Assembly (NCBI GenBank): GCA_035048485.1
Contig: CM068588.1
Coordinates: forward strand, 496,001-560,000
Direction of reading: 5' to 3'
DNA: 64,000 bases
Source: Pteria penguin
Lineage: Eukaryota; Mollusca; Bivalvia; Pterioida; Pteriidae
Below the pieces are notes generated by a model, which worked only from the letters and a program-made list of their open reading frames with translations, did not search any database and was not told where the DNA came from. Position 1 is the first letter of the stretch, and each line of letters begins with the position of its first letter. Position numbers and translations under genes: made by a program. Positions 3,001 through 55,055 of the stretch are shown here, piece after piece.

Positions 3001-4060
3001 TTTCTTAACTGCAGAGTCTTAATTCATATTGAAATAATCCATATTTATATACATACCCTTTAAGTATCTTCCTTACCATAATAATAGGAATTCAGGAAAA
3101 TTTTATACAGTTTTATATAGAAAACTCAAAAACTTGAAAATCCCTGGAAACTCAAAGTATTATCATGCAGTCTCAACTAAATTTCTATTTATTTTATTAA
3201 CAACAAAAAACCTTTGAAAATCGAAAACTATTGAAACTCAAAATGATTTCAAAAGCCCTTATTGAAATTCAACTGTGTATCTGTGTGATATACATCATTA
3301 CATGTACTTTTAAACCCAACACATTAGGATCAACTTGTTCTGTGTTCACATCAGCATTTAAACCAACAATTTTACTCGAGATAGTTTTATCACGGTGTTA
3401 TTCTAATCACAGAAATGGAGTCAGCTGGTATCAGAAATTTTATGAAGGAACTTTATTGTCTGTCGTCCCTGTGTCACTCTCTCTCTTTGCAGTGGACACA
3501 TACTACACGTATACTATTATTCTAAAGAACAACTATTTCTACTTACCATCTCGTATCAAAGCTTGCTTTTCTTCCTCAAGTTCCCTCATGGAATCTTTTG
3601 TCATATTTTCCAAAGCCTGGAGATCTTCTGCACTGGTGTCCTCCTCGGGTGACAGACTGAACAGAATTGCCGTTAAGTTGTCAAACCAACCTTCCCGTCT
3701 TCCAAGTCTCTGTACTTGTTTCATTTGAATCAATGTAGCTTCCTCCTGAAAAAAATGTGTTATTAAGTATAAAATTATCCTGTGTGTATATGACAATAGC
3801 AATTGATCTGCAACCAAAGTAAATATTTGCATGCATTACACATCCCCCTTCTCATACACAGAGCTGCAGCTACATACACATTTCTCGCACATTTTTTAAC
3901 TAACTTGCCTATGTATCAATTAATTGTTTTCTGGTATTTACCTGGGCCTCTAATAAGTTCCTGATTGCCCTGTTCTCTGCATTTTGCTTCTCCTGAAGGT
4001 TAGCCAGTAAGGTCAAGGAGAGGTCATCTTCAGATAATGCAGGATTCTGTTGCCGTTCCA
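1..4060 (-). CDS. C-terminal charged coiled-coil tail (E40-E44), truncated by the window edge
   Basis: E40 (DDLSLTLLANLQEKQNAENR), E41 (199 bp; contains the degenerate LQALENMTKDSMRELEEEKQ, possibly the remnant of a sixth signature), E42 (80 bp), E43 (186 bp; MESQRQKILERVKARK) and E44 (LQKRLQARRLARKRDLEA followed by a low-complexity Asn/Thr/Ser stretch). E44 is open to base 1, so the protein continues to the left of the window. E42 contributes only 26 full codons. No stop codon or polyadenylation signal for this gene is present. Confidence 0.83.
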
Positions 4061-7000
4061 CTGATATGTAATAGACAGACCTTATATCACATGTAGAATA
4101 AAGGACAAATTCTCAATATGATCAATCCTCATACAAGGTCACCAGGTCAATGACCTTGGTGTAATTAGAAAGAGCTTTATAAGTGGATGCATGTCACATA
4201 TGAAGATCTCTGATGGTTCAAAATATGGTGAAGGTTAAATTTGACAAAAGACAGAAACAAACAAACAAACAGACAAACAAATTTATTGATCTGGGGACAT
4301 AAAAATTCAATATTTACAATTATCTTTCTGCCTCAGTTTGAATAAAAGTGAGTGTAGTCATTAAAAGCTTTGACAACTATAAAAACTATCACCTACATTC
4401 TAGCTTGAAAACTGTAACATCAGAAAGAACATTCCTCTGCTCCTGTCGACGAACTGCTACGTCTTTATAAAGTTTATCTCGACCTTGTTTGGACAGCTTG
4501 TCTTCCTGTACATCTGCTACTTGCTGGCTTGTCTTTTTCCAGTTTTTATGAACTTGTTCCAGTTGGGTTAATTGTGTTTTTAACTCCTTAGATATGAAAT
4601 TAAATGTTTTGAATTAATATCAATTATAGCTGCAGTACTAAAGGTATTTTGAATAGTTTTAAAAAATGTATTATCTTAGTAGATATGTACTGGACCAGTC
4701 TGACTAAAAGCAGAGCTTAACATGCTCCATTTATTGATTTATCCCAGGTGAAGGTTTGGAGAAACCCCCAGAGGATAACATTCTAGTGACCCTGGTTCAT
4801 ATACCTCAGATGTAACCTCATTTATCCCAGATGAAGGTTTGGAGAAACCCCCAGAGGATAACATTTTAGTGAACCTGGGTCATATACCTCAGATATAATC
4901 TCATTTTGAATAAACCAGAAGTCACATAATGTTCTGTATACCATATAAACAATGAGGTTATGTTATCTATTAAGAAAAGAAAGGATAATCAGGTTTTACT
5001 CCTGTACCTATAACAGGCCATGCTGAGCACAAAAACTGACCACAAAAGTGACAAGAACGTGACCCACATGCAGCTTCCTCCAGACCTTCTTCAAATTGGT
5101 AATAACAGAAACAAGTTAAAGTCAAATTTAAATGACTGGTACTGGAAAACTATCTAACTGAATATATTTCTGTTTCATTACAAGTAAATATGCACAATTC
5201 GTGCAGACATATTCATCCAGTGATCACATCATTGTAAAGTACAATATTCAATGGTATGTACATTAATTTGTCATCCTGATATTTCTGCTGAGATACAAAT
5301 ATGTTGATATATCAAGTGTGGGTGTAAAAACCAAGCGAGTATGTTATGGTCAAGGTGAAAGAGAAGACATACAAATACAATCAACAACAGGCTACTTAAG
5401 TTAAAAAGGTACTGTCCTTCACAGCCTGAATTTACAGCCATTGAGAAGAAAATCATTCATCTGCTATCTTTGTAGGCTTCCCAAAGATATAAACTTTTCT
5501 TTAATACAAGAATTTAAAACTTTACTTGTGCAAAGATCATGTATTATTTATAAAATAAAATGAATTCTTGTGAGGTGCACATAAATTGTCCATATTTGCC
5601 AAAATGCATGCGCAATAATTTATTCCAAAGCGAGACGTAAACTAAAGTATCAGCAAAATGGAGAAAGTGAAAAGGAAACACAGACAAAATTTATTGTGAA
5701 TAAAGACGTCCTTGTCGTTTTAATGTGGTCACATGATTGATGGCTCATGAATATTCATTATCTAGGTGTGAAATTGCAGAGAAATCACAATATTTCAGAC
5801 ACAGGTATCTCGTTAATGGTACAATATTTTCAAAAGATTTTTGTAAATCTTCGAAGTTGTGTCTAATAAATACATAAAATTGTTTGGACTTTAAAACTTG
5901 TAGCAAGTTTCAAAACTTATAAATCTGCTTATGGATAGTGTTTCATTGATAGCTGAGATAAGTATAACAGGACTATTGTAGCTTATCAACCTGTGAGTTC
6001 ATTTTCTTTGCTGACTTGATGAGCGAAGTGTTTCCTTGGGCTGCTGAAATAAGATCTAATAAAGCATCTCTTTCCTCTGCTTGACGGAGATCCACAGCAT
6101 CCAATATCGCTGAATGTAAGGCCACAAGACCTGTAACAGGTAAACAACAACATAAATATATATCAAATCAATATCGCTGAATGTAAGGCCACAAGACCTG
6201 TAACAGGTAAACAACAACATAGATATATATCAAATCAATATCGCTGAATGTAAGGCCACAAGACCTATAACAGGTAAACAACAACATAAATATGTATCAA
6301 ATCAATATCGCTGAATGTAAGGCCACAAGACCTATAACATGTAAACAACAACATAAATATATATCAAATCAATATCGAAGAAGTACCAAACCGTTAATCA
6401 TTCTCAAAGTCCAAGGACAGATACAAAATCGTGTAAGTTGAAAAAAAAAACTGTTGTGAATCCCGAAATACTGAAAAATTCCGATGTGAGACCAGGTGCC
6501 CAGGGAGAGTAAGCGTCTCCTGTTTGCATGCAATCACAGCAGTTCTTAAGAAACATGTCAAAATGAGTTCTACAGAGATTTTCACTGGTTCATAACAGCT
6601 ATCAGATAATATATACAGAATGATACTGATGCACAAAATGAAAACTTAAAACATATTTAGATTTCAGGGTGTAAATTAAAGGATTCGGGCACTTTTAAGA
6701 TGACAACACAAAGAAGAGTAGAAATGGTGGTATTTCAAATTTTGTACCTTCTTGTTCTACAGCATCATTCATGGCATCTTTTTCATCATTCAGTCTCAGT
6801 TTCTCTTCTATACTTTCTGCTTTTTGCTTCCGTTTCTGTCGCCTGGCTTCTAGCCTTTCTTTTGCCAATGCCTTATTCCTTTCTTTTTCATTTAATATTC
6901 TGTGATGATATAATCAAAACTATAATAGTAAAACCTGCTTAATGGTCAAAGTAAAACCGACTGTAACGATCAAAGTAAAATGTGCTGTAAAGCTCAAAGT

Positions 7001-46576: not shown

Positions 46577-47143
46577 CAGTACAGCCTACGCGGATTACAC
46601 ATTTTCCGCTCTGCCGCCGCGGACAGTTTAAGTTTATAGTGGAAAATCACCGCAACCGTTGCGGTGATTTTTCGCGGCGAACCACCGCAATCTATCTCTC
46701 TTTCCATATCCGAGAGCCATAGCAAATGCTCTGACCCGCACTTAACCATCGTGACCCATCGCAATCGCCGCAACCCACCGCAATCCCACCGCGACCCATC
46801 GCAATCGTCGAGTCTGGTATTAAAATCATCGCTACTCATTGCAATTATCAGGCTTTGTATTGCATTGAAAATTTAGATATTGATTATTGTAAACTTATTT
46901 ATAACATAGTTTGCAAAAATAAATATTTTAAACTTTCAATTAAACATTGTATTGATATGCGATATCGTCATGTCTTTTTATCGCCGTATATCATGGAAAT
47001 TGCATGTATAGCAATGCCCTCATTTGCATTTTCTTATAGAAGCACATAAATAAGAGCACTTTTTATCAGGGAAGCTTGCTTTTTAATATATATATATATT
47101 GTTAGCAGAGACCATATGTTGCACAGAAGGCCTCGCCTTATAA

Positions 47144-47274
47144 CACCAGAGACATAGAGTCCCTGTATATACCATTATATAAGATGTCCCAGTGCCAGTA
47201 TATACAGTCTCCCCCATGCCAGTACATATACAATCTTCCCCGTGCCTCTATACACCTTTATATATGTCTCTGAT
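47144..47274. mobile_element. CAGAGACATA-family element with a long loop
   Basis: CCAGAGACATAGAG on the left and TATATATGTCTCTG on the right, about 100 bp apart. Flanks ATAACAC and ATAACAT resemble a 7-bp target duplication with one mismatch. Confidence 0.55.
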
Positions 47275-47290
47275 AACATTTTTATAGATT

Positions 47291-48419
47291 CAGGGGCGGC
47301 TCCAGCCTGGGGACACGGGGGCACGTGCCCCCCCCCCCCCGGCAGTGCCCGCCGAAGGGGGCACCATTGTCTGTTTTAGGACCTATTTACTGCATTTCTG
47401 TCTAAAATTTCCAAAATTTCGCTTGCTTGCTTCGCTCGCCAGTTATTCTCTCGTATTTCTTTAAATTTGCAGTCGAAAAAAATTGTTGACTCGCTTCACT
47501 CATGATTAATTTCATGATAAATCTCCCCTGATCCCCGTTTATGATCCATAATATTTTCCAGAGGGAAGCGAAATATATGTGCAATCCAAATTAATATCCA
47601 GCACACAAATGTTTGGTCACTTGGCCTCTGGCGAGTAAAATCGTATGGCTACTTGTACATCGTGTAGCAAATGTTACAAATGTTCGAAGCTACGCGCTGT
47701 ACAAGATGGATTTTACTTATCCATACTATTTTACTCAAATACGTCTTGTACATCGTGTAGCTTCAGTACAAATTTTTGAAACGCTTGTACTGAAGCTACG
47801 CGATGTACAAGATGGATTTCACTTCTAGGGCTCATTTCTAGAATAGTTTATTTTCACAACGTATTTTGTATCTCCAAAAGTCTCAAATACAGGAGCTCCC
47901 GTGGAGTGGGACTTTGCACCTTGTTCCCCTACCAAGGATCTACCCTACATCCACCGGGGACCTATAGGCAGTCCCTAGACCCTGTGCCGAGTTTTACGCC
48001 TCCTCCAACTGAAAATCTGGGTCCATGCCTGATAAAATTTCCGTGAATTAGAACAAAAGGGGCCTAATATGGCACACACGATTTTGCAAGATTTTTGTCA
48101 TATCTTCTCAGGAAAACCCCATCCCCACCTATGGGAGAGAGGGAGGGGTGAACATGATAATTCTTGATCGAAAATATTACGACAGTTTCTTCCGATTTCA
48201 GAGTTTTTGCGGAATATTTGAAGTCAAGAAAATGTTGATGAATACTGCAAAAAAGAACGCCAGATTGCACCATTTTGCCTCATTTTTGCCAAATTTTCTC
48301 GGGGGAGGCCCCCCCGAACCCCCACCTATGGGAGGGGCGGACCCCTCCCCATTCGGTCCTTCGGGCCTCAATTGTGAGGCCCCCCCCCCTCGGCACATGA
48401 TGTTCTGGATCCGCCCCTG
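47291..48419. mobile_element. hAT-like element, 1.13 kb
   Basis: The ends CAGGGGCGGCTCCAG and CTGGATCCGCCCCTG are near-perfect inverses of the type common in hAT elements. C- and G-runs lie just inside both ends. No clear target duplication and no transposase were seen. Confidence 0.6.
47634..47811. repeat. Double foldback
   Basis: The second hairpin (47745-47811) pairs CTTGTACATCGTGTAGCTTC with its inverse over 27 bp with one mismatch and a 13-base loop. The first (47652-47705) pairs 17 bp with two mismatches, and its flanks GAGTAAAATCGTATGG and CCATACTATTTTACTC pair again outside it. Confidence 0.85.
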
Positions 48420-49233
48420 AGACTCCTGCGCAAATCGTATACGTACTCTTTCTCTGAGCAAGGAGTCAAAATTCATCCAAAGGAGTAAAATTTCAATAAA
48501 CGGATATTCGTCAAAATTAACATTTTAAGTGTCATATTCATTACGTTTTGTTACACTATCTTTAATTTCAAAATATTTTCCCAAGAAGGACATATACTAA
48601 AGTTTTATAAATCGGCATACATCAACTGTAATTTACTCAAATATAATGGTGGCACTGTTGATATGATATAAAGATTCTGTTGATGTATTTCCTCCGAATA
48701 TATATAACTTTCTCTTATTTCAGTTTAGCTCGCATTATAGCACTGAATCTAGACTCTTATCCAATCCATCATAAGTGAGATATGAGACTCATATTCTATT
48801 GTAATGCAGTTCATATCTTTACTTACGACAAACTGGTAATACCCTGTTGGGGATAAATTTAGAATCATGAAAATAATAGCAATGTTTCGGATGCAAGTAT
48901 TTAACGTCGAGGACAGTATTCCTCTCCCCCAATTGGAACATCTCGCTCTTTATCTCTTAAAACTTTGAAGTGTCCGACCCCTTTCCTTTACTTCATTCAG
49001 GTATGTTGCCAATGGTAACTACCACCCAATACCTGTGTGTAAAACCCACAAGGGTTTCGCTTCCCATGTCAACAACCTTTCCGCTTCGCAATGACTCGAG
49101 GTACATTCGTCTCGCTGCGGGTATCCGGGTATTCTCCAACATGCAGTGACTTCGGCGATCAGGTAGCACGTCCCCAAGTGTAATCACGTGACCTGACCGT
49201 ACTGCCAAAAAGTGTGGAAATCTTTAGTCAAGA

Positions 49234-49271
49234 CAGAGACATATATACACAAATGTGTATATATGTCTCTG
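49234..49271. mobile_element. CAGAGAC palindrome, 38 bp
   Basis: Perfect 18-bp arms starting CAGAGACATATATACACA, with a two-base loop. Flanked by exact GTCAAGA on both sides. Confidence 0.8.
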
Positions 49272-49410
49272 GTCAAGAGTTGTAACAATTCACTCCCGGT
49301 CTACGGCATCAACTTCAGTTTTGAGTTTAATAGTTAGATGCAGGTTATGTCATTGAGCTGTGATTCTCATCCTTAAAACTTGGAATGTTTATACAAATTG
49401 TCAGATATAC

Positions 49411-49447
49411 CTGAGACATATATACTTTGAAAGTATAAATGTCTCTG
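49411..49447. mobile_element. CAGAGAC-family palindrome, diverged
   Basis: CTGAGACATATATACTTT and AAAGTATAAATGTCTCTG, imperfectly paired. Flanked by exact GATATAC on both sides. Confidence 0.7.
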
Positions 49448-49944
49448 GATATACGTACTACATAAAGTATATATGCATATTTAATAATGAACTTGTTAAT
49501 ATTATAAAAAGTTGAGAACCTATACGTAAATACTATCTATGTAATTTCAGGAAGAGATGGCCCTGAATCTGCTAGTTGGCGTCTGCCGACCGTTGCCACT
49601 GTTTTCTATATTTTTCATCTTATGTTGCCCTATTCTTGATGTCGGACTGGTTAAATGACCTAATTTGTATCATATTTGTTGGGGGATAAGTCTCGGGATT
49701 TATCATCGCTGTCTACGAAGAATCCGATATTTTGAATCTTATTTTTGCAAAGTGCGGTCATATAAAATTCGAGGAATGAAAGAGAGTCATCATATAGTTC
49801 ATCAAAGTTGCATTACGGTCTATGATAAACACCGAGTTTATCTCTCAGGTCATCCTCGGAATGTTTCAGGATTATCTTCATTTAGATCTTAGTGTGATGT
49901 CATGCCGACTTCGAGAATAAAAAAGAAAAGCTAGCGTGCTAGAC

Positions 49945-49960
49945 CATATATATGTCTCTG
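49945..49960. mobile_element. CAGAGAC-family remnant, one arm
   Basis: CATATATATGTCTCTG without the CAGAGAC arm, flanked by exact GCTAGAC on both sides. Confidence 0.6.
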
Positions 49961-50214
49961 GCTAGACTATCCAGTGTTTTACCACTAGATCAGGACCCTT
50001 TCGGTTTAAATATACCACCTCAGGCGCTAAATAGTGAACAGGGTATTGTCATATTTAATCCTAATGAATTAACAGGGTATTCAATTTCCGCCAGGAAAAC
50101 GGGAGTTATTCCCAGGACAGCATCAAGCACCCTCAAGTCTGTATATGATTTTCTTGTATCAAAATCCATCTCTACTACATTTTCCCGGCTGAAAATATAA
50201 TCAGGAACTTATAC

Positions 50215-50487
50215 ATGATTGATTGATTAATTTTTGTTTAACGTCACACTATAAATATTTCACGTATATGGTGACGGCATCTGCCTGATGCAAGGCATAC
50301 AAATTTTGACATTTGCAACGGACCCACCCGAAGCAGTGAAGGATCTTTAACGTGCCATGCATACTACGACACGGGGCCTCGGTTTTACTGTTTCATCCGA
50401 AAGACAGGACACCGACATGACCGGGACTCGAACCCCGGCCTCCCGACCACCAGGAGGCGAGCGCGATACCACTATGCCACGCCGGCT
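50215..50487 (-). mobile_element. tRNA-derived SINE, full length
   Basis: Reverse-oriented copy: tail ATTGATTAATTTTTGTTT, body CACGTATATGGTGACGGCAT and AAGCAGTGAAGGATCTTTAA, B-box inverse GGGACTCGAACCCC, head inverse TATGCCACGCCGGCTT. The A-box spacer differs from the copies near 23 kb. Confidence 0.88.
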
Positions 50488-50583
50488 TCGGACAATATCT
50501 AATATAAGGCCCTGATCAAACTGAACAAAAGAATTAAATATCTAGGAAACACCACGTACGTGATAGACTATCAGGTGTTTCTG

Positions 50584-50714
50584 CCATGTTCCAATTTTTT
50601 AATTTACTTGGAGGTGGTAAACACAAAAATTAAAGCATGACAACTAGTTGTCATGTTTTAATTTTTGTATTTAACCATCCTCCACCCCCAAGTAAATTAA
50701 AAATTTAGAACATG
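50584..50714. repeat. 131-bp near-perfect palindrome
   Basis: The left arm starts CATGTTCCAATTTTTTAATT and the right arm ends AATTAAAAATTTAGAACATG. The centre is CAACTAGTTG. Arms pair along the whole length with scattered mismatches. Confidence 0.9.
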
Positions 50715-50747
50715 CATATTACCACGGTCTGTTACACGACTGAAATC

Positions 50748-50931
50748 ATGCGTGGATCCAGAATTTTTTGTCAGAGGGGGTCCAGCCAAAAAAGGTAAAT
50801 TTTTCTCTTAGACGAGGGGGGTCCAACCCCAAAAATGCCCAAATATTACCTTTTTTTGGTAAAATTTTCGGATTCCAGGGGGGGTCCAGACCCCCCTAAC
50901 CCCCCCCCCCCCCTCTGTATCCGCGCATGGA
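50748..50931. mobile_element. hAT-like MITE, ~184 bp
   Basis: CATGCGTGGATCCAGA on the left and TCTGTATCCGCGCATG on the right, with G-runs and C-runs inside the ends. GAAAT flanks both sides. Confidence 0.65.
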
Positions 50932-50964
50932 AATAACGAGTGACACTATGTCGATGCATGACAC

Positions 50965-51003
50965 CAGAGACATAGACTACTTTCAAAGTAGTCTATGTCT
51001 CTG
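50965..51003. mobile_element. CAGAGAC palindrome, 39 bp
   Basis: Perfect 19-bp arms starting CAGAGACATAGACTACTTT around a single base. Flanked by exact ATGACAC on both sides. Confidence 0.82.
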
Positions 51004-51075
51004 ATGACACATCGAACACAACAACTTAATTTCTAAGAAACAAAACGCGCTTGATAGAACATCGCGTATTAATTA

Positions 51076-51120
51076 CCAGAAAGATAGACTACTTTCAAAG
51101 TAAAGTAGTCTATGTCTCTG
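51076..51120. mobile_element. CAGAGAC-family palindrome with altered left end
   Basis: CCAGAAAGATAGACTACTTT pairs with AAAGTAGTCTATGTCTCTG. I see no clear target duplication. Confidence 0.6.
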
Positions 51121-51377
51121 TCACCATTCGATTGGGTAGTTACTTAATAGTTATCTGCCCTTTACCGGTAGGTATCCCGATCGTATCCGCCATTACGGTA
51201 CTGAAAAAAGTTATCGAGATAGAAAAAATAGACCTATGAGCGTAGTGATTAAAACAATATTTACGTTTATTATTGTTTAGTTAAATGATCTGATCGGTGA
51301 CTGTGATTGAAAATTAATAAACGTGTTTGTTTTTATAGTCTATCATGAATTTCAGTTTTAAATTAAGATATAAAAAA

Positions 51378-51399
51378 CCAGACATACATATGTCTCTGG
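51378..51399. mobile_element. CAGAGAC-family palindrome, ~22 bp
   Basis: CCAGACATACATATGTCTCTGG. Flanks AAAAAAC and GAAAAAC match in six of seven positions. Confidence 0.55.
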
Positions 51400-51491
51400 A
51401 AAAACAGAAAAGGAACTTTCCTAACTTGGTCACCCAAGCTAAGTAATGAATTATGTATTTATGTATTACAGATTAATTAGATAATAAGTAT

Positions 51492-51532
51492 CAGAGACAT
51501 AGACTACTATCAAAACCTAGTCTATGTTTCGG
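51492..51532. mobile_element. CAGAGAC-family palindrome, ~41 bp, diverged
   Basis: CAGAGACATAGACTA and TAGTCTATGTTTCGG. The right end has drifted and no target duplication is clear. Confidence 0.55.
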
Positions 51533-51995
51533 CAAATATCAATATCAATAATATCTTCTTGTTATCCATATCAGATTCTCGATTCGACTCTAAGTCGAAA
51601 TGGTATATATCTTTGCAAATTAATTAAATCTTTAATACTTACATTAAATATTCAACAAAATATTTCATATATATATTATATATGACAGAAACCAGCACAC
51701 CATATCATAAACGAGGATTTTTCGTAACTTTCACTCAGATGGAATATGACTTTAAATTTCAGTATTTCAGAATTGTTGTTTTCGGGGATGAGAAACATCA
51801 TCATCTACTTAACTATTTCCAAATTGAGACTACTCTATTATGCAAAACCTGGAGTTGAAAGTTTCAGAAAATCCTTTAAAAATTTCGTATATGATCTCTA
51901 AGGTAATAAACTGCAGTATTAGGGCTGTGAAAATTGAATACAACTCTACTTCGTAACCGAAACAACTTGTCAAAAATAACTTAATTTACTTAACA

Positions 51996-52158
51996 ATGGC
52001 GGATTTAGGAGGAGCGGAGGGGTGCTCCCCCCCCCCCCCCGCCCCCCAACAGTGACCCAAATTCTACCAAAACTCTGTAATTTAGTCCATTTTCGGCTAA
52101 AATTGACAACATTCGTCCTTTGATCCCTCGGCAAAGGGAGTGATGGATCCGCCACCGG
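51996..52158. mobile_element. hAT-like MITE, ~163 bp
   Basis: ATGGCGGATTTAGGAGGAGC on the left with GTGATGGATCCGCCACC on the right. A C-run lies inside the left end. Confidence 0.55.
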
Positions 52159-53388
52159 ATAAAGAACGAAGATCAATTCACTATGCTTTACTTCCCTCGT
52201 GTATGCAATGTTAATTGATTTGCTCCAATCAACATACACGTGTATCAATTATAGTCTTACGGAAGATGGGGTTAAACAGCTGACATAAATCCTGTAAGTT
52301 TATTGCGTAATACGGACGACAGTTTCTGGAAAGTCGCTTTCACTTTTGCCAAGGATACCTGGACTGAGATATTATTTACCACAGGTGACAACCTGGTTTT
52401 ACACCTATTACACAATCCATTTTTTGTCAGTACAAGCTTAAAGGAAAGTGTTTTAATATATCTGAATCTCTTCTACATATCATCATTCTGTTTCTAAAAC
52501 CCAACAATGAACACCGTAACTTTGAATCTATCACCTGATAAACTTCAAGCGTAACAGGCATTTTTTTGCACACAATGACTGGGACTAGACAAATACTTCG
52601 CCAGTACTTTGACAGAGGACCTTGAGGACACCGAGTCGCCTGGCAATGAAGCCTCTCAGTCCACAATTTGAAGGGGAACACGAATGCCCAGACTGCTTTT
52701 CATGACCCTGCGTGATAGATGATCGCAACCGACAGATGTGGTGACCAGAATCAGACGTCCCTCCTCACCATCGTAATCCGGCATAGCAAGAGAGAGAACC
52801 TATACAAGAAGTGCTGGACAATGCTATGCCATCGTGTTGTGTGGGATGATTCTCGATATTTAGATAGAAAGACTCGGAAAGTCAGTCTGAACAGAAGGCG
52901 AAACAGATTTGTATGGCAGTCCCATGGATATTGGGAGGATATTATGCCCAATTGTGTATTTCGTAAAGTACAGGAGAAATATCAGCTTATGTCCTCAAAC
53001 TCCTTCAAAATAAAACTCTCCAAATAGAGATCAAAACAAACAAATACATCAAACACCCCACCCCCTAAAAAGTAATAAAACCAATTAAAATGAAAAAATA
53101 AAATACAACTAGAATCTTCATTACTGCACTAAAGAATGTACTTTCTATTACCAATTCAAATCCCACACATTGTTTACATCAAACTATAGCATGTTCACAC
53201 CTCCCGATTACCATGCGCTTCCAGGCATACCCAATACCCCGATTACCAAGCGCCTCTAGGCAAATACCCCGAGCTGGAGACAAGCAGTGATTTCGGCGAC
53301 CAGTTAAACAACGTCCCCAGCTTAATCACGTGACTTCAACCGTACGGTCAAAAAGTTTCCCCTTTAAACTCGATATCATGGGAATAAT

Positions 53389-53406
53389 CAGAGACTTCTG
53401 TCTCTG
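53389..53406. mobile_element. CAGAGAC palindrome, only 18 bp
   Basis: CAGAGACTTCTGTCTCTG: 7-bp arms and a 4-base loop. Flanked by exact GAATAAT on both sides. Confidence 0.65.
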
Positions 53407-53922
53407 GAATAATTTAATTTTAATAGATCAGTACTAAACAGTCAGTTATTCCAGGAATATGCGTCCCTGATTATTCATAAAAAACTCACATTATTAGCAG
53501 TAAGATTGGATATATCTCTGTTTGCGTTAGGTTTTGTAAAGTAATGTTATCAAGGCAATGGCAAATAGTCTGTATTTCAGTCATAATTACAGTCAAGACC
53601 GCAAAAATGCATAACGACTTATTAAAGATACAAATGATGAAAAAAAAAGATACCAGTAGATTGTGTAATCTGATGGAAGGACTTATAAATTTGTGTAAAA
53701 GTCCTTGGCTGATGATATGAGACTAGGCTGATGATAGCTACCGTAATAGTCACGTGATCAGAAGATGACCGCGTACGTGTATTACGCGTAGGAATGGTCT
53801 ATATTTAAAGTAAACTTTAAAAGCACAAATTCAAGAGATAGATAAGAACAGTTATATAAAGCGATCACGATTGATCAAGTTGTTTGCGACAATAATTCAG
53901 ATTCATATAGGTCGGTTTCAAC

Positions 53923-53952
53923 CAGAGACATACATACACATGTATGTCTCTG
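53923..53952. mobile_element. CAGAGAC palindrome, 30 bp
   Basis: Perfect 13-bp arms CAGAGACATACAT with a 4-base loop. TTTCAAC occurs on the left edge and, offset by one T, on the right. Confidence 0.7.
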
Positions 53953-54117
53953 TTTTCAACCATGTAAACCAATAAGACAATCACGTTTCAATTACTGATT
54001 TTTTTTTTGTAAAGAACGTATAAACAAGATAGGTCCTTGTTTTTCTTTTTTTCCTTGAAATCAATTTGTTTAATTTAATTCTAAAGAATTTCTTTCATAT
54101 CGCGTGCCTACGGACAT

Positions 54118-54300
54118 ACTGGTAGTTACCAGCTAAGATCAGTTACCGGCTACTACTTTTTTTTTTGTCTTTTGAAACGTGATTTTATGAGATTTTTTTT
54201 CACGTGATTGTCTGCAATACACAGAATACATATGAATTCATGGTTTGAATACCCTTGATAACGTAGTAGCCGGAAACTGGTCTTAATCGGGGACTGGTCC
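54118..54300. mobile_element. MITE-like element with ~34-bp inverted ends
   Basis: The left end contains AGATCAGTTACCGGCTACTA and the right end GTAGTAGCCGGAAACTGGTC, which are inverse with few mismatches. About 105 bp of AT-rich sequence lies between. Confidence 0.7.
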
Positions 54301-55055
54301 TTCGACAGTATACTTCTACATAAATTCTAAGATTTTATTATAAATAAAGGAAAATCGGAAATGACCTATTCTATAAATTACTTGTCAAATTAATGACCAC
54401 TACTTTTGTACATTATTCATAAGACATACCCGCTGTGCGAAATACGATTTCAGCTTTCCTTTTTTGCTAAGATAGCATTTCCAAATTAATCACAATAAAA
54501 GATATGTTCATTAATTCATATACAAGTAACATTTATTAAGAGCGACAGTGTTCGAACCGTTGTAACACATTACCCTTTTAAAGTTAATGCAATTGCGTAT
54601 AATATTCTATTTTACTAACGAATAACTTTTAGATGTATTGTTTATAGAGAGCATTTCACATCAAAATATAAGATACTTAAGTCAAAGTACATTAAATTTA
54701 ATAGACCCTTAGCTCCCGTAAGTGGAATATAAATAGGACCTGGACGAATTTTAAAGTATGGCTATTGAAACATTACAAAGTATCGCAGGTATCCCAATAC
54801 AAGATTCTGCAACGATGATAACGATTGCGGTGGCCCGCCGCGTTTTTGTCTTCAAGTGCCTGCGGCGATATGACCAACTGCGGTGACCCGCGATGGACTA
54901 TTCAATCTCCTGTCACGACAGTAAAAATTACGGTGGGTTGCGATGGATTTGAACGTCCACCGCAATCTTATTTTGCGGTGGGTTGCGGTGATTTCCCACC
55001 CAAAAATCGGTTGCGGTGATGGGTGGAAAGTGAGGAATCCGCGTAGGCTGTACTG

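What the first reader, a model, noticed from the sequence alone, without database searches (positions are those of the whole stretch)
46900..54000. A family of tiny CAGAGAC...GTCTCTG palindromes with 7-bp target-site duplications
About ten short hairpins (18-45 bp, plus one with a 100-bp loop) share ends CAGAGAC(ATA) and (TAT)GTCTCTG but differ in their centres. Exact 7-bp direct repeats flank five of them: GTCAAGA (49,234), GATATAC (49,411), GCTAGAC (49,945), ATGACAC (50,965) and GAATAAT (53,389). Near-matches flank three more. Direct repeats that differ from copy to copy but keep the same length are the mark of transposition rather than chance or conversion. An 18-bp unit would be about the smallest transposed element possible, essentially two end sequences with no interior. 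I know no named family with these ends and sizes.
Basis: partly seen in the sequence, partly recalled or inferred. Interest (0 to 1): 0.88.

Follow-up and report, generated by a model that had tools for sequence, protein, structure and literature searches.

The report
Scars left by departed P-like transposons
The tiny palindromes are most likely not miniature jumping genes but repair scars left where much larger P-element-like transposons were cut out of an animal genome, and more than two thousand such scars survive as a record of past jumps.

Summary
In detail: ten short CAGAGAC...GTCTCTG hairpins, five with exact 7-bp flanking repeats. It is genome-wide: 2,397 exact-ended pairs in an 838-Mb genome, reversed control 0. 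In 50 sampled sites, 26 have exact 7-bp and 5 exact 8-bp flanking repeats; mismatched flanks match in 2 of 2,450 pairs.

The interpretation, a minimal transposed unit, is not supported. The same outer letters end 1.5-1.9-kb elements with 7-bp duplications and a 6.8-kb element carrying a P-type transposase, which sits in a copy of the window's own repeat at a site that is empty in the window. In intact ends the outer stretch (mostly 17, also 19 or 20 nt) runs into AGAGACTGGAAACT. The palindromes stop within about one base of that block: 292 have full 17-nt arms on both sides, 1 match runs two bases further on both. That fits a P-type staggered cut, then end joining with filler. Of 50 sampled scars, 42 have different centres.

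So these are excision footprints of a P-superfamily transposon. Notable are the scale, and that the inner cut seems to follow an inner motif rather than a fixed 17-nt count. Cleavage itself was not tested.

The parts
47147..47272 (.). CAGAGACATAGAG...TATATATGTCTCTG, 126 bp; probably a footprint with long filler or a much shortened derivative; flanks ATAACAC/ATAACAT
   Evidence: 7 bp, 1 mismatch; apart from its ends, no long match to L047, L090 or L106
49234..49271 (.). 38-bp footprint, 17-nt type-A arms each side with AAAT between them; duplication GTCAAGA at 49227-49233 and 49272-49278
   Evidence: 14 of 20 copies of the host repeat have the empty site with GTCAAGA (5) or its one-base variant (9) once
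49411..49447 (.). 37-bp footprint of the CTTTC-bearing end type; duplication GATATAC at 49404-49410 and 49448-49454
49945..49960 (.). 16-bp form of a 22-bp footprint (without AGAGAC on the left); duplication GCTAGAC at 49938-49944 and 49961-49967
   Evidence: 22-bp form, CAGAGACATATATATGTCTCTG or a one-base variant, in 9 of 20 copies of the host repeat
50965..51003 (.). 39-bp footprint, type-B arms; duplication ATGACAC at 50958-50964 and 51004-51010
51077..51120 (.). 44-bp type-B footprint with a changed left end; no clear duplication
51379..51398 (.). 20-bp footprint; flanks AAAAAAC/GAAAAAC
   Evidence: in L068 the site holds three GAAAAAC copies and an extra 17-nt arm
51492..51532 (.). 41-bp type-B footprint, right end changed; flanks differ at 2 of 7
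53389..53406 (.). 18-bp footprint with 7-nt arms; duplication GAATAAT at 53382-53388 and 53407-53413
   Evidence: same site in L047 has centre TTAC instead of TTCT
53923..53952 (.). 30-bp footprint; 8-bp duplication GTTTCAAC/TTTTCAAC
   Evidence: exact 8-bp repeat at the same site in L047
53075..53081 (+). ATAAAAC, the unoccupied target of the 6,842-bp transposase-bearing element that sits at the matching place in L047
   Evidence: L047 flanks align to window 54498-53075 and 53083-51858 at 94-95%; element L047:1442-8283 has duplication GTTTTAT

Best explanation
The palindromes are excision footprints of a P-superfamily cut-and-paste transposon. An element of 1.5-6.8 kb with inverted ends CAGAGAC...(17-20 nt)...AGAGACTGGAAACT inserted and duplicated 7 (sometimes 8) bp. 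The transposase later cut one strand at the outer end and the other at or one base past the start of the inner AGAGACTGG block, so each flank kept a single-stranded tail of the outer 17-21 nt. The two tails, being inverted copies, were trimmed, filled (often with AT) and joined, leaving duplication-palindrome-duplication. Shown: duplications, empty sites, intact elements, a transposase with P-type domains inside an element with these ends, the sharp arm limit, site-specific centres. Inferred: the staggered cut, the end joining, and that this transposase is the one that acted. The cluster in the window was then copied as the surrounding repeat multiplied.
For: Intact elements: CAGAGACATATATACACAG has 530 places, 100 listed; among those, 23 neighbouring pairs within 8 kb face each other, 22 of them 1,528-1,956 bp long and one 3,995 bp; 21 of the 23 have the exact inner block at both ends and 2 at one. 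L090 (1,928 bp, 7-bp duplication GTTTTAC) and L106 (1,531 bp, TACTAAT) have 32-bp inverted repeats. L047:1442-8283 (6,842 bp, GTTTTAT) shares their right end at 88-93% and encodes PF21787, PF21788, PF21789, with PDB 6p5a P-element transposase at E 2.1e-11 for the second reading frame. Arm limit: of 100 arms in 50 sites none needs more than one base past the inner block's start (two at +2 and +3 are one filler base followed by the other arm); 292 two-sided full 17-nt arms against 1 place reaching AG on both sides. End types with outer lengths 17, 19 and 20 before the same inner block. Centres: 42 distinct of 50; of the 50 two-sided full-arm scars displayed, spacers are AT 19, ATAT 14, A 4, others 13. 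The Drosophila P transposase cuts 17 bp inside its 31-bp repeat (PMC7776569, passages).
Against: No excision was observed and no individuals were compared. The left end of the one transposase-bearing element matches only 19 bp and lacks the inner block, and its transposase is split over two overlapping reading frames, so this copy may be dead. The first reading frame matches no solved structure at E 1, and no THAP domain was found. 39 of the 100 listed CACAG ends lack the exact inner block; some of these are scars, the rest were not read. Scars outnumber intact ends (2,397 pairs against 496 ends), which needs many jumps per surviving element. The first A of the inner block is also the first base of AT filler, so the cut could be one base later. 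My pattern fixed 10 bp at both ends, so stronger trimming was not sampled, and one search counts only arms that run on at both sides. At shared sites the repeat copies mostly show one form with small changes, not several repair outcomes.
Confidence: 0.92

Rival explanations
1. Minimal transposing units: the 18-45-bp palindromes themselves are moved in trans by the transposase.
For: Constant ends and true 7-8-bp target duplications; presence or absence at the same site among repeat copies; some centres recur, e.g. AT or ATAT spacers.
Against: 42 distinct centres in 50 sites; they lack the inner AGAGACTGG block that 21 of 23 facing pairs of intact ends carry at both ends; unequal trimming of the two arms; the recurrent centres are those expected from AT filler; constant 10-bp ends are partly imposed by my search pattern.
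Confidence: 0.04
2. Short internal-deletion derivatives formed by interrupted gap repair rather than by end joining of cut tails.
For: Internal deletion is common in P elements (recalled); the 126-bp unit at 47147 could be one; the 1.5-1.9-kb elements without long reading frames look like deletion derivatives.
Against: Deletions should end at many depths past the inner block; only 1 place has both arms continuing AG with a spacer of up to 30 nt, against 292 with full 17-nt arms on both sides, and in the 50 sampled sites no arm needs more than one base past it.
Confidence: 0.03
3. Palindromes spread only as passengers of a large repeat (segmental copies), with no transposon history of their own.
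For: The window stretch is a repeat: 40 copies scored at 94-100% over 341 bp, 1,045 first-look candidates; most window sites are shared among the fetched copies.
Against: Only one pair of the 50 sampled sites shares flanks, and only two others have weak flank matches to the window's repeat region; occupied against empty copies at 49234 show an insertion within the repeat.
Confidence: 0.01

Closest known systems
Drosophila P element and its end-joining excision products
   Same: P-type transposase domains; about 31-bp terminal inverted repeats; cut 17 bp inside the end on one strand (PMC7776569 passages); footprints with tails and AT-rich filler (the latter recalled, not read here)
   Different: 7-bp rather than 8-bp duplication in most sites; outer stretch of 17, 19 or 20 nt depending on end type; over two thousand scars in one genome
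Galileo (P superfamily, Drosophila)
   Same: 7-bp, occasionally 8-bp duplications (PMC4168063 abstract and passages), as here; transposase of the P kind
   Different: Target consensus GTATTAC there; long internally repetitive inverted repeats (PMC3573991 abstract in the listing); the word footprint does not occur in PMC4168063
Zebrafish Pdre2 / THAP9
   Same: P-type element of an animal with transposase-dependent excision (PMC10983969 passages)
   Different: 13-bp ends CATACCTGTCAAC, 8-bp duplication; excision by zebrafish THAP9 in S2 cells gave larger flanking deletions
Bivalve THAP9-like proteins (Mytilus, Ylistrum, Pecten, Argopecten, Crassostrea)
   Same: The 13 best named bivalve hits are 46-54% identical to the 622-aa L047 frame over 74-89% of it; best hit of all P0001, unnamed, 72% over 99%
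   Different: Their ends and footprints were not examined here

Membership tests
P superfamily of DNA transposons | Transposase with P-type RNase H domain and GTP-binding insertion | tested here: met
   PF21787 E 3.7e-20 (frame 1), PF21788 2.3e-20 and PF21789 1.9e-10 (frame 2); 6p5a E 2.1e-11 for frame 2, no PDB match for frame 1 at E 1; the two frames overlap out of phase in this copy
P superfamily of DNA transposons | Terminal inverted repeats (31 bp in Drosophila P, 13 bp in Pdre2) | tested here: met
   32 bp in L090 and L106; 34 bp in the type-B element L107/L108; 19 bp in the transposase-bearing L047
P superfamily of DNA transposons | 7-8-bp target-site duplication | tested here: met
   five intact elements: GTTTTAT, GTTTTAC, TACTAAT, ATGTTAA exact 7 bp; L107/L108 8 bp with 1 mismatch
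P superfamily of DNA transposons | THAP DNA-binding domain (usual in P and THAP9 proteins; not shown here to be universal) | tested here: inconclusive
   none in the 622-aa frame nor in 10 of the upstream minus-strand frames (frames); short exons could be missed and this copy may be decayed; none of the 120 listed relatives shows a THAP domain in its precomputed Pfam column
P superfamily of DNA transposons | Staggered cut 17 nt inside the 5' end, leaving 3' tails | tested here: inconclusive
   inferred from arm limits; not assayed; length appears to be 17-18 in type A but 20-21 in type B
Miniature transposon (MITE) moving as a unit | One consensus copied to many sites | tested here: not met
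   42 distinct centres of 50
Excision footprint | Target duplication plus element termini limited by the cut position, with variable junctions | tested here: met
   the cut position itself is inferred

The most novel reading that the evidence does not exclude
In this P-type family the inner strand cut is placed by an inner motif (a second CAGAGAC-like block, C|AGAGACTGG) rather than at a fixed 17 nt from the end, so families with 17-, 19- and 20-nt outer stretches share one kind of transposase and leave tails of matching length; and, because jumps were repaired often by end joining, the genome keeps a readable log of thousands of individual excision and break-repair events.
Probability: 0.5. 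Interest if true: 0.7.

Novelty: new variant of a known kind. Interest (0 to 1): 0.55.

Why it matters
P-element excision scars are known from Drosophila genetics mainly as single events (recalled). Here a natural genome holds over two thousand candidates, with intact elements beside them, so jump history, repair outcome (trimming, filler, spacer spectrum) and the placement of the unusually long staggered cut can be read from sequence. It also warns that short palindromes with perfect target duplications need not be transposable elements. My searches of the paper library listed no such genome-wide record, judged from the titles and abstract openings of the rows listed (one search listed 15 of 79 papers, 15 of 187, 20 of 21); papers of subscription journals are mostly not held.

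Tried and rejected
Considered and rejected: hAT, Dada, Mutator and other superfamilies by duplication length, from memory; the P-type transposase in an element with these ends decided it. Of the 30 loci that PF21787 brought in (L016-L045), none shows facing ends of this kind within its own 3.2-3.4 kb; single look-alikes occur, e.g. one exact CAGAGACATA in L036. Three places were widened: L016's became L047 (ends found), L020's became L046, and C5:40875589 became L048 (neither has facing ends). The other loci were not widened, so their ends are unknown. An early search for type-B scars followed within 200-260 bp by another end gave 5 matches, four of them apparent copies of the window's 50965 scar (judged from the 80 letters shown), and no short intact element. 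The left end of L047 is single-copy, which first suggested no other copies; one search then showed the shorter family. Comparison at shared sites across repeat copies mostly showed one form with small changes, not several independent repair outcomes. The interior of the 126-bp unit at 47147 has no clear source in the three elements. Ten upstream frames of L047 gave no THAP domain. Paper search failed for a short term and was not repeated in that form; one search used related terms and found 0.
Full report
What was checked. The window is G000:C9:496001-560000 of an 838-Mb genome in 49 contigs. The best named relatives of the transposase found here are from bivalves (Mytilus, Ylistrum, Pecten, Argopecten, Crassostrea), so the animal is probably a bivalve mollusc; I did not identify the species.

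The observation. Ten hairpins with CAGAGAC...GTCTCTG-like ends lie at 47147-53952. Five of ten have exact abutting 7-bp direct repeats, two have one mismatch in 7, one has one mismatch in 8, one has two mismatches in 7 and one has none. Random spaced pairs in the window match at 7 bp in 0.235% of 400,000 trials. The pattern with 10 fixed bases at each end occurs at 2,397 places in the genome, and 0 times when reversed. I obtained flanks for the 50 places that one search listed, all on contig C1: 26 of 50 have an exact 7-bp repeat, 5 of 50 an exact 8-bp repeat, 36 of 50 have 7 bp with at most one mismatch and 9 of 50 have 8 bp with at most one mismatch; exact 5, 6, 9 or 10 bp do not occur among the 50. 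Left flanks set against right flanks of other sites match exactly at 7 bp in 2 of 2,450 pairs and with at most one mismatch in 26. Only one pair of the 50 sites shares flanks (L008/L009).

Empty sites. The hairpin stretch is itself part of a repeat: one search scored 40 copies of a 341-bp piece at 94-100% identity out of 1,045 candidates. Among 20 fetched copies (one being the window), 14 lack the 49234 palindrome and have the target once, 6 have the palindrome (one with a 6-bp insertion in it) between two copies of the target. That is direct evidence that the 7 bp were duplicated on insertion.

The source elements. The best PF21787 hit of the genome lies in L047 (G000:C4:9455000-9464500). L047:1442-8283 is 6,842 bp with perfect 19-bp inverted ends CAGAGACATATATACACAG and 7-bp duplication GTTTTAT. 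Its flanks align at 94-95% to window 54498-53075 and 53083-51858 in reverse, so window 53075-53081 is the unoccupied target. It encodes PF21787 in a 622-aa frame and PF21788 plus PF21789 in an overlapping 276-aa frame; the gene is therefore not one open frame here, and I left it so. The second frame matches the solved Drosophila P transposase 6p5a at E 2.1e-11; the first has no match there at E 1. No THAP domain was found in the first frame or in ten upstream frames. The first frame has 78 matches in the genome, only one of them full length (L047 itself); the next best is 82% identical over 337 residues with one stop. The exact 19-mer CAGAGACATATATACACAG has 530 places; of the 100 listed, 23 neighbouring pairs within 8 kb face each other, 22 of them 1,528-1,956 bp long and one 3,995 bp; three neighbouring pairs have another orientation. 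Of the 100 listed ends 61 have the exact inner block AGAGACTGGAAACT, and of the 23 facing pairs 21 have it at both ends and 2 at one; the other 39 ends include scars such as C1:19019100 and were not read further. Two elements were read: L090 (1,928 bp, GTTTTAC) and L106 (1,531 bp, TACTAAT), both with 32-bp inverted repeats and no reading frame over 91 aa, and both sharing the right end of L047 at 88-93%. L047's left end departs after 19 bp and lacks the inner block, a point against taking it as an intact donor.

End types. Type A ends read CAGAGACATATATACAC then AGAGACTGGAAACTC. Type B ends, read at two elements (C1:69236945-69238086 and C2:20591973-20594780), are CAGAGACATAGACTACTTTC then AGAGACTGGAAACT (both ends of the first) or one-base variants AGAGAATGG and AGGGACTGG (second); their duplications are 8 bp with one mismatch and ATGTTAA. 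Searching CAGAGAC-N(3-33)-AGAGACTGGAAACT gave 496 places; most of the 100 shown have 17-nt outer stretches, others 20 nt, 19 nt (CAGAGACATATATACTTTC, CAGAGACATAGATACTTTC) and a few between 15 and 23 nt; two longer rows are nested double counts. The pattern itself demands the block, so these rows show the spread of outer lengths, not how often the block is present; for that.

Where the scars stop. I compared both arms of the 50 sites with four outer stretches plus the inner block. Of 100 arms, 4 stop exactly at the inner block, 31 have one further base (A, which is both the first base of the block and of AT filler), one has two and one has three further bases, both explained by a single filler A followed by the other arm; 63 stop earlier. 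Fourteen arms are best assigned to type B; seven of them reach 19 nt or more and none 22. So in type B the tail can be longer than 18, in type A I see no case that must be. Genome-wide, 292 places have full 17-nt type-A arms on both sides with a spacer of up to 30 allowed; only 1 place continues with AG on both sides, in a pattern that asks for slightly less of the outer ends. One-sided continuation was not counted genome-wide. Of the 50 full-arm places shown, spacers are AT 19, ATAT 14, A 4, ATATAT 3, and others 10 including none 1; none is longer than 8 nt (rows). Among the 50 sampled sites 40 have filler, 7 are blunt and 3 overlap (these class counts depend on treating that A as filler).

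Reading. Outer letters of the element, a sharp limit tied to an inner block, variable trimming, small filler and an intact target duplication are what a P-type cut followed by end joining would leave. The review PMC7776569 (passages) states that the Drosophila enzyme cuts 17 bp inside its 31-bp repeats on one strand and that donor breaks are repaired by recombination or end joining. The AT filler seen in Drosophila footprints is recalled, not read. The 7-bp (some 8-bp) duplication matches Galileo, another P-superfamily member (PMC4168063 abstract and passages).

Numbers. Scar pairs (2,397, exact 10-bp ends) exceed intact ends (496, exact inner block, a few counted twice), and CACAT ends (1,769) exceed CACAG ends (530). 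All are exact-match counts, so sequence-diverged copies are missed. In cut-and-paste movement each jump can leave a scar without raising copy number, so about ten scars per remaining element is plausible (inference).

The bolder part. Because the same inner block follows outer stretches of different length and the scars follow the block, the inner cut seems set by a motif, perhaps the second CAGAGAC formed at the junction C|AGAGAC. This rests on 14 type-B arms and very few type-C arms and needs biochemistry.

What is not settled. Whether the family is still active; which transposase acted; the exact cut to one base; why several scars lie close together (5 of 49 neighbours on C1 within 10 kb against 1.3 expected, and ten in 7 kb here).

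Noticed in passing
window about 48360-51900 and 51858-54498: This stretch belongs to a large interspersed repeat with at least 40 copies at 94-100% identity over the 341-bp probe and 1,045 first-look candidates; its nature was not determined.
   Followed up: partly
L046:72-2837(+) with 3649-6096(-); L048:53-1595(+) with 3104-5002(-): Two other P-type transposase loci lie tail to tail with reading frames carrying Pif1 helicase domains (PF05970 and PF21530 in L046, PF21530 in L048), suggesting a P-like lineage that carries a helicase gene; L047 has a convergent 333-aa frame without a Pfam match.
   Followed up: partly
G000:C2:33084918-33085045: Four type-B 20-mers in the same direction at 36-bp spacing, perhaps a tandem array of half-footprints.
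   Followed up: no
L068, site matching window 51379: Three copies of GAAAAAC with an extra 17-nt arm between two of them, as if a second insertion or a repair duplication struck the same target.
   Followed up: no
L003:1487-1545: The palindrome's flanks are inverted (CGTAAAATACAAAC / GTTGGTATTTTACG) instead of direct repeats, perhaps a rearranged excision.
   Followed up: no
L047:551-600 and 1100-1130: The segmental copy carries the same two scars as window 53923 and 53389, the latter with a different 2-base centre.
   Followed up: partly
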